This document shows positions 5,996 to 60,539 of a stretch of 64,000 nucleotides of DNA, piece by piece. Within the stretch, counting starts at the first letter, position 1, and each line of letters begins with the position of its first letter. Origin of the DNA: a virus; the IMG/VR virus record IMGVR_UViG_3300036766_001793, positions 1 through 64,000 of that record. The stretch is one strand, 5' to 3'. Position numbers and translations under genes: made by a program. The notes under the pieces are model-generated. The model saw nothing but the letters and a program-made list of their open reading frames with translations, was not told the origin of the DNA and searched no databases.

Positions 5996-6451
5996 TCATG
6001 CCGGGCGGGAGAGCCGGTAGCTGGGGCCGGGCCTGCGCCCGGTCGCCGGCGGGAGCCCCCGGAGCAGGCCCTCGACGAACCTCCACTCGGATGCCGCCGG
6101 GCAGTCGCCGGACCGGCAGACCCCTCCGGGCCGCGCCCCGCCGCAGTCGACGCAGCGCCTGAGCTCCTCCCGCCCGACCCTGCGGCCGGCGGCCAGCTCG
6201 AGGACGCCGTGCACCACCCTGTCCATCTCCGCCCGCCCGTGGGCCCGTATGAACTCGTCCACGTTCTTCCGCCATCTCCGCGCTTGGTCCGCTCCGGCCC
6301 CCGAGGCCTCGGCGAGCGGGCCGCCCTCGTAGAACTTCCCGCCCCTCGGGCCCGTCTGGACGGCCGCGCCGCGCGGAGGACGCTCGCCCGGCCGGAGGTA
6401 CTCCCTGCCGACCGAACCGGAGAGGTCCAGCGCCAGCTCGAGCCTGCGCAT
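5996..6451 (-). CDS. GPRGG-motif protein, 151 aa
   Basis: ATG at 6449-6451 has a near-ideal GAGAAGGAGCC before it. Residues about 20-43 read REYLRPGERPP...QTGPRGGKFYEGG, the motif shared with proteins at 8035-8473 and 59430-60539. After that comes a helical segment (ARRWRKNVDEFIRAHGR) and a Cys cluster (CVDCGG...CRSGDC). GPRGG(K/L/R)(F/Y)Y segments are known from virus head-morphogenesis-type proteins, so virion association is plausible but inferred. It lies directly downstream of the papain-like protease. Confidence 0.65.
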   Translation of the reverse strand: MRRLELALDLSGSVGREYLRPGERPPRGAAVQTGPRGGKFYEGGPLAEASGAGADQARRWRKNVDEFIRAHGRAEMDRVVHGVLELAAGRRVGREELRRCVDCGGARPGGVCRSGDCPAASEWRFVEGLLRGLPPATGRRPGPSYRLSRPA

Positions 6452-39093: not shown

Positions 39094-39816
39094 TCATTTT
39101 AGCGCGTCCGGCCCCTCGAGGTCCCTGGCCCTGATCTTGGTGAGGACCGGCCTCCCGCGGCGGTCGCGGAGCCCTGGCAGGGTCCTGGCCACCAGCCCCT
39201 CGGCCATCTTGCGCGCGGCCGTGAGCTCTGAGTAGACCCCCAGCCTGACGGCCTCCTCCATCTCCCCGAGGGTCCCGGTGCCGACCACCGGCACGCACTC
39301 GAGGCCAAGCTTGTCGGCCACGTCCTGGGCGTCCCCCATGGACAGCCACCAGCCGTCGATGACCACGTCGAAGACGATGAACGACGGCTGGCCGTAGTCG
39401 CCCCCGCCCTTCTGGATCCCGGCCCCGTAGCCCTCCCCGTAGATGGTCGCCCTCGGGAGGGCAGACCTCCCGAGGGTCGCCAGCAGGTTCATTTCCGAGA
39501 AGGCCTTGAGCAGCGCCGGTGGCATTTGCGCCCGGTCGGTCCGGCCGCCGACGCGCACCGAGCCGGCCGCGGGGTCCCACCCGATCCTGACGTTCGTCCC
39601 GTCGACCTTCTCGGTCCACAGCCACTCGCAGTCCCTGAGCCACTCCAGCTCTGGGGTGGACCACTGGCCGAGCAGCATCTCTCCGCCCGGCCCCCTTTTG
39701 TAGAGCGATTGGATCTTCGGGTACTCCGCCATGAACCAGTCCGGCGGCTCCGCCGGCATCGTCCTCCAGGTAGGCTCGCGAAGCCCCGCCAGGACAGTCT
39801 CCGTCAGCCCTGTCAT
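39094..39816 (-). CDS. RNA ligase (T4 Rnl2-like family), 240 aa
   Basis: Nucleotidyltransferase motif I is EKVDGTNVRIGWDP (lysine nucleophile, KxDGxN) near residue 59. Then RTDRAQMP, ATIYGEGYGAGIQKGGGDYG (motif III-like), PSFIVFDVVIDGWWL (IIIa), VEGLVAR-like EGLVARTLPG (IV) and VLTKIRARD (motif V). ATG at 39814-39816 overlaps the upstream stop. It should seal RNA nicks; with the CCA-enzyme and tRNA it suggests tRNA repair, which is inference. The frame is also open upstream through a separate 55-aa gene, which is taken as a sequence-error effect. Confidence 0.85.
   Translation of the reverse strand: MTGLTETVLAGLREPTWRTMPAEPPDWFMAEYPKIQSLYKRGPGGEMLLGQWSTPELEWLRDCEWLWTEKVDGTNVRIGWDPAAGSVRVGGRTDRAQMPPALLKAFSEMNLLATLGRSALPRATIYGEGYGAGIQKGGGDYGQPSFIVFDVVIDGWWLSMGDAQDVADKLGLECVPVVGTGTLGEMEEAVRLGVYSELTAARKMAEGLVARTLPGLRDRRGRPVLTKIRARDLEGPDALK
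39096..39101 (-). promoter_or_regulatory. Leaderless -10 box TAAAAT
   Basis: TAAAAT, 6 nt, ATG. The box overlaps the stop region of the RNA ligase gene. Confidence 0.6.
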
Positions 39817-39980
39817 TTCTTCAGGCCCGCCGCGAGCCTGTCGATGTTCGTCGTCCCGTGGAGGTTCGGCCCCGCCTTGACAGAGCGGACCACCGTCACC
39901 TCCACCACCAGGGCGTAGTACCGCTCCCCGCCGCCCTGGATCGCCCTCCAGATCGTCCCGTCGTTGGTCGCCAGCAGCAT
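39813..39980 (-). CDS. 55-aa protein
   Basis: ATG at 39978-39980. MLLATNDGTIWRAIQGGGER YYALVVEVTVVRSVKAGPNL is beta-rich. ATGA overlap with the RNA ligase start. Function unknown. Confidence 0.6.
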   Translation of the reverse strand: MLLATNDGTIWRAIQGGGERYYALVVEVTVVRSVKAGPNLHGTTNIDRLAAGLKK

Positions 39981-39982
39981 CG

Positions 39983-40200
39983 TCAGTCCCCTCGAGCCTC
40001 GCCCTGAGGCCTTGTATCGTTCCTTCGTAGTGCTCGCGTTGCCGCGCGAGCCCGGTCCGCTTGGCGTTCACGGCGTGGTTCGCTCTCCCCTCTGCCATCA
40101 GTGCCCTGCGGCGCCAGTACCTCAGCGCCTCTGCCGAGTCCGGCCGCGGGGCTTTCAGGACTTTGAGGAGCGCCCGAGTGTAGTCCCCGTCACCAGACAT
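39983..40200 (-). CDS. Helical protein, about 72 aa (stop lost by probable one-base error)
   Basis: ATG at 40198-40200. MSGDGDYTRALLKVLKAPRP DSAEALRYWRRRALMAEGRA ... HYEGTIQGLRARLEG is helical and basic. The frame lacks a stop as read; one extra G in the GGGG near 39988 would end it at the TGA at 39983-39985. Confidence 0.55.
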
Positions 40201-45451: not shown

Positions 45452-46726
45452 CTAGATGAACAGTCCCCCTAGCCTTTTGAGCCCGCCCACCGCCGTGCCG
45501 AACGGGGTTCTGCCGCCGCCGAGCGCCTGGATGACCCTGGCCGTCTGCGGGATTGACCGCCCGGCAAGCACGTACCCGGTCCTCTTCTCTATCTGCTCCA
45601 CGGCCTGGTTGACCGAGGCCCCGTAGTCCCCCCCGCCGGCGAAGCTGTTGTTCTGGGTGAAGTTGATGGTGTTATTCGAGTTAACCATGGACACCCCACC
45701 ACCTAAGACGCCCTGCTGCTGGGCTTGCTGCTTGTTCTTCATCCAGGCCATGCCACCCTCGGCAAAAGCGCCGATGCCAGCCCCAATAGCAGTACCCCAT
45801 CCCGGCATAATCATAGACCCTATAGCGCCACCTTCAATAGCGCCCTTACCAGCAGCTGCCAAGACATTCGTCTTCTTCTGACCTACTCCGACCATTGGAA
45901 GCGCAGTCTGAAGTATGCCCTCCGCCGCCTGACCTCCGAAATAGCCAATCATAGCTTTCTGGCCAATAGTACCCATGAGACCGCCCTTCCCAGCTGTTGG
46001 GATGCCGATCATGGCCTCCTCGGCTTTGGCAGCCTTGCCGCCTATCCCGAACATTCTAAATCCTAGCCCCACCAAACCCTCTCCGGCTCTCACAACACGC
46101 CCGAGAAGAGGGAAGTTCCTAGCAAAGAGATAGCCTAAGGCTAGGGTTCCAGCGGTGGCCGCGGCGGCCGTCGGGTTGGTCACCGCCTCCTTCACGGTCG
46201 CCTTGACCGCGTCCGCTATCAGGGACCCGACCTTACCGAAGTCAAGGTCCTTGATGGCCCTCAGCATCTCTATGAGCCACCTAGCCATGGCAGCTATGTT
46301 CTTCGCCACCTCCTCCATGATCTTGGTCATCTTCTCCAGGTACCCTGACGAGATGAGCCACATGATCAGCTTGGAGATGCCGACCATGAGGAGGTTGAAC
46401 AGTGGGATGAACGGGATCAGGAGGATGTCGATCGCGGCGCCGAACATCTTCCCCATGGCGCCCATGTAGGTGTTGGCTACGGCGCTGTTCTTGAGGATCC
46501 CGCCGAGGGCCTTCTCTATCCCGAAGAGGAGGGCGAGGGGCTTGAAGATGCCCTGCCCACCGGCCCCCGGGGGGACTCCCCCCTGGCCGGCGCCCGCGCC
46601 GGCGGACGCGCCGCCGAGCGCCGCCCCGGCCGGGCCGCCGACGCCCTGGGACGCGAGGAGGCGCCTCAGGTCTGAGGTGTCCACCTTCATCGTGAAGACG
46701 AGGTCCTGGGCGCTGGGCTGGGTCAT
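45452..46726 (-). CDS. Tape measure-like protein, 424 aa
   Basis: ATG at 46724-46726. Directly after the tail-assembly chaperones, as tape measures are. Contains a Gly/Ala-rich head, hydrophobic membrane-active helices (FGAAIDILLIPFIPLFNLLM; ISKLIMWLISSGYLE), a central helical part, Gly-rich segments (GAIEGGAIGSMIMPGWGTAI GAG) and an Asn-rich stretch (VNSNNTINFTQNNSFAGG). At about 1.5 A per residue it predicts a tail near 60 nm. The DNA around 45.7-46.1 kb is markedly AT-richer than its surroundings. Confidence 0.75.
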   Translation of the reverse strand: MTQPSAQDLVFTMKVDTSDLRRLLASQGVGGPAGAALGGASAGAGAGQGGVPPGAGGQGIFKPLALLFGIEKALGGILKNSAVANTYMGAMGKMFGAAIDILLIPFIPLFNLLMVGISKLIMWLISSGYLEKMTKIMEEVAKNIAAMARWLIEMLRAIKDLDFGKVGSLIADAVKATVKEAVTNPTAAAATAGTLALGYLFARNFPLLGRVVRAGEGLVGLGFRMFGIGGKAAKAEEAMIGIPTAGKGGLMGTIGQKAMIGYFGGQAAEGILQTALPMVGVGQKKTNVLAAAGKGAIEGGAIGSMIMPGWGTAIGAGIGAFAEGGMAWMKNKQQAQQQGVLGGGVSMVNSNNTINFTQNNSFAGGGDYGASVNQAVEQIEKRTGYVLAGRSIPQTARVIQALGGGRTPFGTAVGGLKRLGGLFI

Positions 46727-47360
46727 CTGCTGTAGGCCTCAGATTTCATTTTGACGCGTTCGTTCGCCACCACGAACCACCTGAGCACCGTCTGCTCGTC
46801 GGGAGCGCCCTCGATGGCCGGCCACGGGATCCCGCCCTCCAGGAGGACCGCCTCCACGTGGGCCCTCCACAGGTCCTCGTCGGCCATCTGCGCGTCTCTG
46901 TCCCCTAGGAGGAGCTCCCGGTACCTTTTCCCATCTCTGCAACCCCGGCGGAGCTGAACGGGTCTGGGATGATGGCGTCGAACTGGGCTCCGACCGCCTC
47001 CGGGAAGCGCTCGATGACGCTCTCGGACATGGCGAACGGGCAGGCCGTGACCATCTCCACGAGGGCCTTCTTCTTGTAGACGTCGAGGTGGAACACGGCC
47101 TTGACTATGGACGCCCCGGTCTGGGGGTTGGTGTCGGAGGCGTACTCGGTCGCGGCCGACACCGCCCGGCTCTTGCCGGTCCAAGTGAGCGGCCTCCAGC
47201 GGACCTCGAAGGATACCTCGTCGTTCACCGCGATGGTGAGCGGCTCGCCCTCCTCCGCCCCGGCCTCGAGGATGGCGGCCAGGATCTCCTGGCCGCTCCT
47301 GTCGATGCGTGGGAGGCCCTGCGCTGCGGGCCTCGCCGCGCGGCTTCTCTGTGCGGTCAT
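46723..47360 (-). CDS. Tail assembly chaperone, frameshift product (gpGT-like), about 212 aa
   Basis: The upstream frame (46905-47360) reaches GGA-AAA-GGT; slipping back one base at GGGAAAA (46926-46932) continues as RYRELLLGDRDAQMADEDLW RAHVEAVL...WFVVANERVKMKSEAYSR and stops at 46723. The downstream frame has no start codon of its own but clear coding quality. Position just before the tape measure is the conserved slot of gpG/gpGT chaperones. Confidence 0.85.
46905..47360 (-). CDS. Tail assembly chaperone, unshifted product (gpG-like), 151 aa
   Basis: ATG at 47358-47360. AxTIAVNDEVSFEVRWRPLT WTGKSRAVSAATEY is a beta-rich core, and the end VAEMGKGTGSSS is the short tail made when no slippage occurs. 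It should bind the tape measure during assembly together with the frameshifted form. Confidence 0.85.
   Translation of the reverse strand: MTAQRSRAARPAAQGLPRIDRSGQEILAAILEAGAEEGEPLTIAVNDEVSFEVRWRPLTWTGKSRAVSAATEYASDTNPQTGASIVKAVFHLDVYKKKALVEMVTACPFAMSESVIERFPEAVGAQFDAIIPDPFSSAGVAEMGKGTGSSS
46926..46932 (-). promoter_or_regulatory. -1 frameshift slippery site GGGAAAA
   Basis: A G-GGA-AAA heptamer of the lambda G-T kind (GGGAAAG in lambda), about 9 codons before the stop of the 0-frame. Both frames are coding on the correct sides. Confidence 0.85.
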
Positions 47361-58503: not shown

Positions 58504-58580
58504 TGGAGCGCGCGGGGGGACTCGAACCCCCGGCGGCGCGGGGTTGAAATCCCGCCGCTCTGCCCCTGAGCTACGCGCGC
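58504..58580 (-). tRNA. tRNA with encoded CCA and 8-nt anticodon loop (UUC, Glu, if one C is an error)
   Basis: Acceptor GCGCGCG/CGCGCGC pairs perfectly, D-arm GCTC...GAGC, T-arm GGGGG-TTCGAGT-CCCCC, discriminator T and CCA are all present. The anticodon stem GCGGG/CCCGC encloses ATTTCAAC, eight nt. If one C of the CCCC run is a homopolymer error the loop is ATTTCAA and the anticodon UUC (Glu). If genuine, the loop resembles +1 frameshift-suppressor tRNAs. A -10 box TAACAT ends exactly 6 nt before the 5' end, so the transcript may start at nucleotide 1. Confidence 0.85.
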
Positions 58581-58586
58581 GGTCCC

Positions 58587-58592
58587 ATGTTA
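58587..58592 (-). promoter_or_regulatory. -10 box TAACAT of the tRNA gene
   Basis: TAACAT lies 6 nt before the mature 5' end, the same spacing as the leaderless mRNAs. It overlaps the TAA stop of the gene ending at 58590. Confidence 0.6.
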
Positions 58593-58862
58593 CCGCGGCG
58601 CGCCGCCGTCGCGGAGCGCGCCCAGCCCGGAGGCGACCTCCAGGCCGCCTGCCTCCTCGGCGTCCGATATGAAGTTGTCCACGGAGCTGGACGCGGAGAT
58701 GGGGCCGCCCCCCGCCGCCTCGAGGGCGGCGCGGTAGTCGGCGACCGGGTCGCCGGTGGAGAACCTCGCGGGGGCGGCCCAGAGGTCCCTGGCCTCGGAG
58801 AGCTCCACGGCCCTGTACGTGCCGGGGTGGAACTCGTCGTAGTCTATCCCGATGATCTTCAT
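58590..58862 (-). CDS. Hypothetical protein, 90 aa
   Basis: ATG at 58860-58862 after GGGAGGAGAGGGAG, overlapping the Fic stop. MKIIGIDYDEFHPGTYRAVE LSEARDLWAAPARFSTG then a Ser/Ala-rich helical end. Transcribed with Fic, so a candidate cofactor or antidote, but it carries no antitoxin signature. Confidence 0.65.
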   Translation of the reverse strand: MKIIGIDYDEFHPGTYRAVELSEARDLWAAPARFSTGDPVADYRAALEAAGGGPISASSSVDNFISDAEEAGGLEVASGLGALRDGGAPR

Positions 58863-59401
58863 CTCCCTCTCCTCCCTGGTGGTCGCGCCGCGTTCTGCGC
58901 CTCCCACTCCTCGATGCTCCGGTAGTAGGCGAACCTGTCCTCGTACCGCACGGTGAGCCACCGGAGCCCCACGGTGAGCCTGAGGGCGTTCATCCACAGC
59001 CTCCCCGTCCTGCCGTTGCCGTCCCAGAAGGGGTGGACCCACTCCAGCCTGTGGTGCATGCCCCAGCACCACCCCTCCGGGTCCTCGGGCACGGCCGCCG
59101 CCGCCGCCGCGAGCAGGGCCGGGAACTCGCCCCTGACCTCGGCCGGGCCCATCTTCAGGCGGCCGCCGACCGACACGCCGACCTGCCTGAGCTCGCCCGG
59201 GAACTTCCCGGGCTGCGAGGCCATCAGCCTCCTGTGGATCCCCAGCGGGTCCAGCCACTCCTCCGGTCGGGCCGCTACGCCCCTGGCCACGGAGAGGTGG
59301 TCGTCGTACAGCGGGTGCCCCGGCGCGTCCGGCTCGCCCTCTATCCGGTTGGACTGGGCGACGAACTCGGCGAGGTCGGCGTCAGGCGTCTGTCTCTGCA
59401 T
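58859..59401 (-). CDS. Fic-family AMPylase/protein-modifying enzyme, 180 aa
   Basis: The Fic core HPFWDGNGRTGRLWMNALRL (HxFxDGNGRxxR complete; Pro for the usual Ala) lies at about 115-135. Near the N-terminus FVAQSNRIEGEP contains SxxxEG, the inhibitory helix motif of class II/III Fic proteins, so activity is probably autoinhibited until triggered. ATG at 59399-59401 lies 6 nt after TACGAT. It lies downstream of a GPRGG protein, in the same direction. The target is unknown; host translation or cell-division proteins are typical. Confidence 0.9.
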   Translation of the reverse strand: MQRQTPDADLAEFVAQSNRIEGEPDAPGHPLYDDHLSVARGVAARPEEWLDPLGIHRRLMASQPGKFPGELRQVGVSVGGRLKMGPAEVRGEFPALLAAAAAAVPEDPEGWCWGMHHRLEWVHPFWDGNGRTGRLWMNALRLTVGLRWLTVRYEDRFAYYRSIEEWEAQNAARPPGRRGR

Positions 59402-59429: not shown

Positions 59430-60539
59430 CTACCACACGTCCGGGATCCCGAGCGCCTCCGCGATGCTGGCCCTGCCGTGGGTCCTGTACGCGTTGACGA
59501 GTCCCGCCAGGCGGCCCTCCGCCTCCTCGGACCTCCCCCGGAGGCGGGCCGCCTCCCCCTGGGTGGTCGCCGCCAGCTCCGCGCGCTCCGCCGCCCCCAG
59601 GGCGCCCCTCAGCCTCCCGTACTCCGGGTCGCCCTCGGCCATCCGCCTCGCCACCCCGGCGGCCACCCGGCGCACCGCGGCCGGCAGCTCGCCGGCGACG
59701 AGGCCCTCCCTGCGGACTCCCGCCCCACGCAGCTCCCGGAGCGCCTCGTCGACGCCACCGGCCTCCCTGAGGTCCTCGAGCGCCCTGGCCGCCCTGTCCT
59801 CCCACCCGGCGGCGAACATGCCGCGGGCCCGCCGCGGCTCCGGGGTGCGGTCGGCCGCGCCCTGGTCGCGGGCCCAGTCGAGCATCCACCTGGCGGCCTG
59901 GGAGACAGCCTCGTCCGCCCCGGCGGCGTGCCCGCCGTACAGCAGCTCGGCGACCGGCCCGTTGTCGTGCGCCGCGGACATCGCCTGGTCTATAGCCAGG
60001 ACCTGCGACCTCCTGTCCCCGTGCGCCGAGGTCTCCAGGTCCCTGGTCACCTTCTCCAGGAGGGCGTTGAGCTCGGGCGACCTGCGGTAGAACGCGAAGA
60101 GGCGCTTGCGGGCCCGGCCCGCGAGGTCCTTGGCGAGCCTCCTGACCCCGTCGTCGCTCAGGTCGCTCACCCTCGAGTACTGGAGGATGCCGCCCGCCAT
60201 CTCGCGGACGTCCTGGGCCTCGAGCCGGCCCAGGCCCTCGGTGAACTCGTCCAGCCCGTGCCCGCTGGCCTGGCGGAACGCCTCGTCAGCGGTCGCCGGG
60301 GACGCCTCCTCCCCGGCCGCGGCGGTGCCACCGGTGCGCCTCCAGTAGCGCCCCCCGCGCGGCCCGGTCCACGTCGCCGCGCCGGCCGGGGGCCGGAACC
60401 TCTCGGGGTCGTAGTTCTTCCACTGGCCGTCGGCCTTGTAGATGGCCCACGACACGCGCTCGGCCATGTCCAGCCGCGCCCACATGGCCACCGCCGCCGA
60501 CAGCCTGAGGACCCTATCTACGCCCGTCACCAGTCCCAT
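59430..60539 (-). CDS. Large GPRGG-motif protein, 369 aa
   Basis: ATG at 60537-60539. Residues 30-66 (WAIYKADGQWKNYDPERFRP...TWTGPRGGRYWRR) contain the GPRGG motif. The remainder is mostly helical (LAKDLAGRARKRLFAFYRRS PELNALLEKVTRDLET; ELPAAVRRVAAGVARRMAEG) with an AHDNGPVAELLYGGHAAG patch. Length and helicity suit an internal head or ejection protein. It lies between the capsid gene and Fic, consistent with virion packaging, which is inferred. Confidence 0.65.
   Translation of the reverse strand: MGLVTGVDRVLRLSAAVAMWARLDMAERVSWAIYKADGQWKNYDPERFRPPAGAATWTGPRGGRYWRRTGGTAAAGEEASPATADEAFRQASGHGLDEFTEGLGRLEAQDVREMAGGILQYSRVSDLSDDGVRRLAKDLAGRARKRLFAFYRRSPELNALLEKVTRDLETSAHGDRRSQVLAIDQAMSAAHDNGPVAELLYGGHAAGADEAVSQAARWMLDWARDQGAADRTPEPRRARGMFAAGWEDRAARALEDLREAGGVDEALRELRGAGVRREGLVAGELPAAVRRVAAGVARRMAEGDPEYGRLRGALGAAERAELAATTQGEAARLRGRSEEAEGRLAGLVNAYRTHGRASIAEALGIPDVW

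What the first reader, a model, noticed from the sequence alone, without database searches (positions are those of the whole stretch)
58859..59401. Autoinhibited Fic enzyme as part of the structural-gene neighbourhood
The Fic core is complete and an N-terminal SNRIEG inhibitory motif (S/TxxxE) is visible, so the enzyme carries its own switch. It sits between a large GPRGG protein and a small co-translated 90-aa protein, within 5 kb of the capsid gene. This placement suggests late expression and possibly packaging rather than a toxin-antitoxin pair.
Basis: partly seen in the sequence, partly recalled or inferred. Interest (0 to 1): 0.6.

Follow-up and report, generated by a model that had tools for sequence, protein, structure and literature searches.

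The report
Phage Fic enzyme with built-in brake
A large phage carries a small Fic enzyme, predicted to attach AMP to other proteins and to hold its own inhibitory helix; it is a cargo gene of a known and common kind, and a related phage shows that its place beside the capsid gene is not a conserved feature.

Summary
The gene is real: window 58859-59401(-), 180 aa, Pfam Fic 46 bits, motif HPFWDGNGRTGR, N-terminal SNRIEG. A confident AlphaFold model (pLDDT 93.8) matches human FICD over residues 1-171 (Z 18.8); counted from the alignment ends, E21 falls on FICD's inhibitory E234. It is a compact class II Fic of a kind common in uncultured phages (57 of 73 relatives with an HPF[VW]DGN core carry S[NSD]xxE). 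The motif call stands; the placement argument does not. In the closest relative (capsid 79% identical) the structural gene order is kept, but the Fic orthologue (62% identical) lies past the tail genes, 27 kb from the capsid. The co-translated 90-aa gene is missing from all seven relatives held, and no neighbour is conserved across 65 phage Fic loci. Most coding in this genome runs on one strand, so shared orientation says little about late expression. Best reading: an accessory, self-restrained AMP-transferase, possibly also de-AMPylating, acting on an unknown protein in the infected cell. Packaging in virions is untested and unsupported; a separate antitoxin is unlikely. The motif does not prove inhibition: a close structural match, C. 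difficile Fic, is reported active despite it.

The parts
58859..59401 (-). Fic gene, 180 aa, compact single-domain class II Fic
   Evidence: Pfam Fic 46 bits; AlphaFold pLDDT 93.8; FICD Z 18.8 over residues 1-171
59336..59353 (-). codons of SNRIEG (residues 17-22), predicted inhibitory helix motif with E21
   Evidence: sequence; conserved SNxIE in 54 of 65; end of helix 6-20 in the model
59144..59176 (-). codons of residues 76-86, the flap hairpin expected to dock the target
   Evidence: short strands at 77-78 and 81-82 in the model; V76, V/I78, G79 conserved
59000..59035 (-). codons of the catalytic motif HPFWDGNGRTGR (residues 123-134)
   Evidence: sequence; most positions invariant in the alignment
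58590..58862 (-). 90-aa gene, start codon overlapping the Fic stop (ATGA); not conserved
   Evidence: found in none of seven relatives
59430..60539 (-). 369-aa GPRGG protein, upstream neighbour, function unknown
   Evidence: 35% relative in G001, 5 kb beyond its Fic; no family match

Best explanation
A compact class II Fic AMP-transferase carried as an accessory gene by a large tailed phage. Shown: intact catalytic motif, flap and N-terminal inhibitory helix in sequence and predicted fold; an orthologue in a related phage at another place in the genome. Inferred: ATP binds; E21 pairs with the second Arg of the motif (R134) and keeps AMP transfer low; during infection the brake is eased (by oligomeric state, metal ions or target binding) and the enzyme adds AMP to a hydroxyl of an unknown protein, most likely of the host. 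By analogy with FICD and EfFIC the same glutamate may also let it remove AMP.
For: Pfam and solved-structure matches; AlphaFold pLDDT 93.8; FICD Z 18.8 and C. difficile Fic Z 17.9, both including the N-terminal helix, whereas VbhT, NmFic and EfFIC match only from residue 22-29 on; SNxIE kept in 54 of 65 sequences; orthologue moved relative to a syntenic structural module; no conserved neighbour; class definition and role of the Glu from PMC3667792, AMP removal from PMC6408439.
Against: No activity measured. C. difficile Fic is reported to AMPylate independently of its motif, and several class II Fic proteins stayed inactive after the motif was abolished (PMC7479194). Glu position was inferred from alignment range ends, not coordinates. 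The G001 orthologue has SNRIER, not the strict E(G/N). Host target is a guess.
Confidence: 0.62

Rival explanations
1. A gene that guards the infected cell against competing phages (superinfection exclusion), working like the single-gene SoFic or PDC-S04 defence candidates.
For: PADLOC matches PDC-S04 E 1.5e-13 and SoFic E 1.1e-10; accessory, movable position.
Against: The matches cover mainly the Fic core, which all Fic proteins share, so they do not single out defence. No phage challenge data.
Confidence: 0.2
2. Toxin-antitoxin pair in which the 90-aa protein is the antitoxin.
For: Start codon of the 90-aa gene overlaps the Fic stop, suggesting coupled translation.
Against: 90-aa gene absent from all seven relatives, G001 with a Fic orthologue included; 54 downstream neighbours in 46 families; inhibitory motif already in cis.
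Confidence: 0.06
3. A late protein packaged in the virion and injected with the DNA.
For: 3.1 kb downstream of the capsid gene on the same strand; in both phages it lies within or just past the structural region; terminase-like genes occur within 8 kb in 12 of 65 other loci.
Against: Position not conserved while structural order is; most of the genome is on one strand, so orientation is uninformative.
Confidence: 0.08

Closest known systems
FICD/HYPE (human class II Fic)
   Same: Fold over residues 1-171 (Z 18.8, rmsd 2.2), motif, N-terminal inhibitory Glu
   Different: 24% identity; the phage protein lacks FICD's N-terminal membrane and TPR parts
C. difficile Fic 0569
   Same: Small class II Fic; Z 17.9, with E21 falling on E35 by range count
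   Different: 20% identity; cellular; reported active independently of its motif (PMC7479194)
SoFic (Shewanella class II Fic)
   Same: N-terminal inhibitory helix; Z about 16
   Different: About 370 aa; the phage protein lacks its C-terminal part; far below the NCBIfam SoFic cut-off (24 against 550 bits)
Fic family protein ORF98 of Fusobacterium phage FNU1
   Same: Phage-encoded Fic; best BFVD match, E 1.3e-6 (PMC6591296)
   Different: 289 aa, 17% identity; function not tested in that paper's passages read

Membership tests
Fic (PF02661) | Match to the family model over its cut-off | tested here: met
   46 bits against 24
Fic (PF02661) | Signature HxFx(D/E)GNGRxxR | tested here: met
   HPFWDGNGRTGR, residues 123-134
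Fic (PF02661) | AMP transfer to a protein | not testable with these tools
   needs enzyme assay
Class II Fic | (S/T)xxxE(G/N) before helix 1 of the Fic core | tested here: met
   SNRIEG at 17-22, end of helix 6-20; definition from PMC3667792
Class II Fic | Glu suppresses AMP transfer | not testable with these tools
   needs E21G protein; motif can be present without inhibition (PMC7479194)
Class I Fic toxin-antitoxin | Separate antitoxin carrying the inhibitory motif | tested here: not met
   motif is in cis; the 90-aa sequence holds no (S/T)xxxE(G/N) by reading and is not conserved
SoFic / PDC-S04 defence candidates | Full-length match to the defence model | tested here: inconclusive
   matches cover mainly the Fic core: SoFic profile 122-208 of 361, PDC-S04 115-216 of 244
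SoFic / PDC-S04 defence candidates | Protection against phage | not testable with these tools
   needs plating assay

The most novel reading that the evidence does not exclude
The compact SNxIEG Fic proteins form a widespread phage-borne class of bifunctional AMPylase/de-AMPylase that reversibly modifies a host protein during infection, a phage counterpart of FICD.
Probability: 0.25. Interest if true: 0.5.

Novelty: new member of a known kind. Interest (0 to 1): 0.24.

Why it matters
If active, it would be a phage enzyme that modifies proteins under its own control, and about 90 relatives in uncultured phages suggest the strategy is common; the papers searched here gave no biochemical study of one. 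The orthologue at another place in a related phage makes the cargo reading directly testable.

Tried and rejected
A direct peptide scan of IMG/VR with the single Fic found nothing; an alignment-based scan was needed. The GPRGG query found no related viral contig and no phage record, so its function stays open. A conserved operon partner was sought by clustering flanking ORFs of 65 loci with a simple longest-first gene caller: none. Late expression inferred from strand: rejected as uninformative. Decoding by the odd tRNA was checked by looking for G001 proteins split over two minus-strand frames in this genome: none that fits. Paper searches gave no study of a characterised phage-encoded Fic AMP-transferase.

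Full report
Observation. The ORF at 58859-59401(-) encodes 180 aa from the first possible start in its frame. Pfam Fic scores 46 bits, and the nearest solved proteins by sequence are FICD. HPFWDGNGRTGR (residues 123-134) is complete. SNRIEG lies at 17-22. A plain (S/T)xxxE(G/N) occurs in 5% of shuffles of residues 1-110, so the pattern alone would be weak; SNxIEG was never seen in 20,000 shuffles.

Relatives. The window is part of a 165,484-base IMG/VR record. An alignment-based scan of IMG/VR gave 91 relatives, 80 kept. In the alignment with usable relatives SNxIE is present in 54 of 65 sequences. Because the scan used the inhibitory motif as one of its two patterns, I also counted only relatives with HPF[VW]DGN, which the other pattern would find regardless: 57 of 73 carry S[NSD]xxE and 44 of 73 the strict (S/T)xxxE(G/N). 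The distance from Glu to catalytic His is 90-129, median 101; here it is 102. Bacterial and archaeal genomes also hold many Fic relatives.

Structure. AlphaFold with 50 aligned sequences gives pLDDT 93.8, pTM 0.89. FICD aligns over residues 1-171 with 214-411 (Z 18.8, rmsd 2.2, 170 residues). Counting from the start of that range, E21 falls on E234; by the same count it falls on E35 of C. difficile Fic. VbhT, NmFic and EfFIC, with the brake on a partner or at the C-terminus, match only from residue 22-29 on. That is what class II predicts. The class definition and the role of the Glu are from PMC3667792; its role in AMP removal from PMC6408439. A warning comes from C. difficile Fic, reported to work independently of its motif (cited in PMC7479194).

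Neighbourhood. Seven viral contigs share the capsid protein at 60-79% identity. Only the closest, G001 (171,975 bases), has a Fic; the other six contigs are 36-110 kb and may be fragments, so absence there is inconclusive. Window and G001 share gene order from the capsid through the tail genes. In G001 capsid and holin-like gene are 2.5 kb apart; in the window 7.2 kb lie between them, including Fic. The G001 Fic (59% by tblastn, 62% by global alignment) lies after the relative of the window's 1766-aa protein, which carries a C-terminal peptidase domain, 27 kb from the capsid. So Fic has changed place relative to a stable structural module. A 35% relative of the GPRGG protein lies 5 kb beyond the G001 Fic, so the two may share a variable region, though not as neighbours.

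The 90-aa gene. It overlaps the Fic stop, which suggests coupled translation, but it is absent from all seven relatives and from phage records. Across 65 phage Fic loci, 54 same-strand downstream neighbours fall into 46 families, the largest with five loci. There is no sign of a dedicated partner. ORFs there were called by a simple longest-first rule, so small genes may be missed.

Expression. A composition-based call puts most of the genome on the minus strand, so the shared strand with the capsid gene carries little information. No expression data exist here.

Mechanism. Most likely a self-restrained AMP-transferase that acts on an unknown protein in the infected cell. Target, trigger and chemistry are inferred. 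Protection against competing phages is the main rival, resting on PADLOC matches to the Fic core.

Verdict. The conclusion drawn from placement is not supported. New member of a known kind.

Noticed in passing
58504-58580 (-): Solitary tRNA gene just downstream of the 90-aa gene (ARAGORN; Rfam tRNA 48.5 bits) with an 8-base anticodon loop AUUUCAAC, read by ARAGORN as a four-base anticodon UUCA, so it might read UGAA or UGA. No split reading frame fitting this was found against G001.
   Followed up: partly
L181:11212-19295 and L182:161-3257 (same genome, about 95-107 kb): Cluster of 41 tRNA genes of nearly all kinds, all on the minus strand, one with an unresolved two-base anticodon.
   Followed up: no
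39094-40200 (-): RNA ligase (PHROG 548, E 7e-17), possibly for tRNA repair in a phage rich in tRNA genes.
   Followed up: no
L100:9136-14301 (-): Two adjacent large ORFs (686 and 1031 aa) made of short degenerate repeats of the type 'xxxAxxxLES', perhaps fibre-like proteins.
   Followed up: no
46723-47360 (-): Two overlapping ORFs both matching G001 in the same order, upstream of the tail genes, offset by a -1 frame; might be a programmed frameshift pair of tail assembly genes.
   Followed up: no
59430-60539 (-), L015:1375-2340, L016: The segment WxxYDPxRFxxPxGAxTxxGPRGGRY of the GPRGG protein recurs in G001, and a second weak match lies in this genome at 6185-6409; no family model matches it.
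   Followed up: partly
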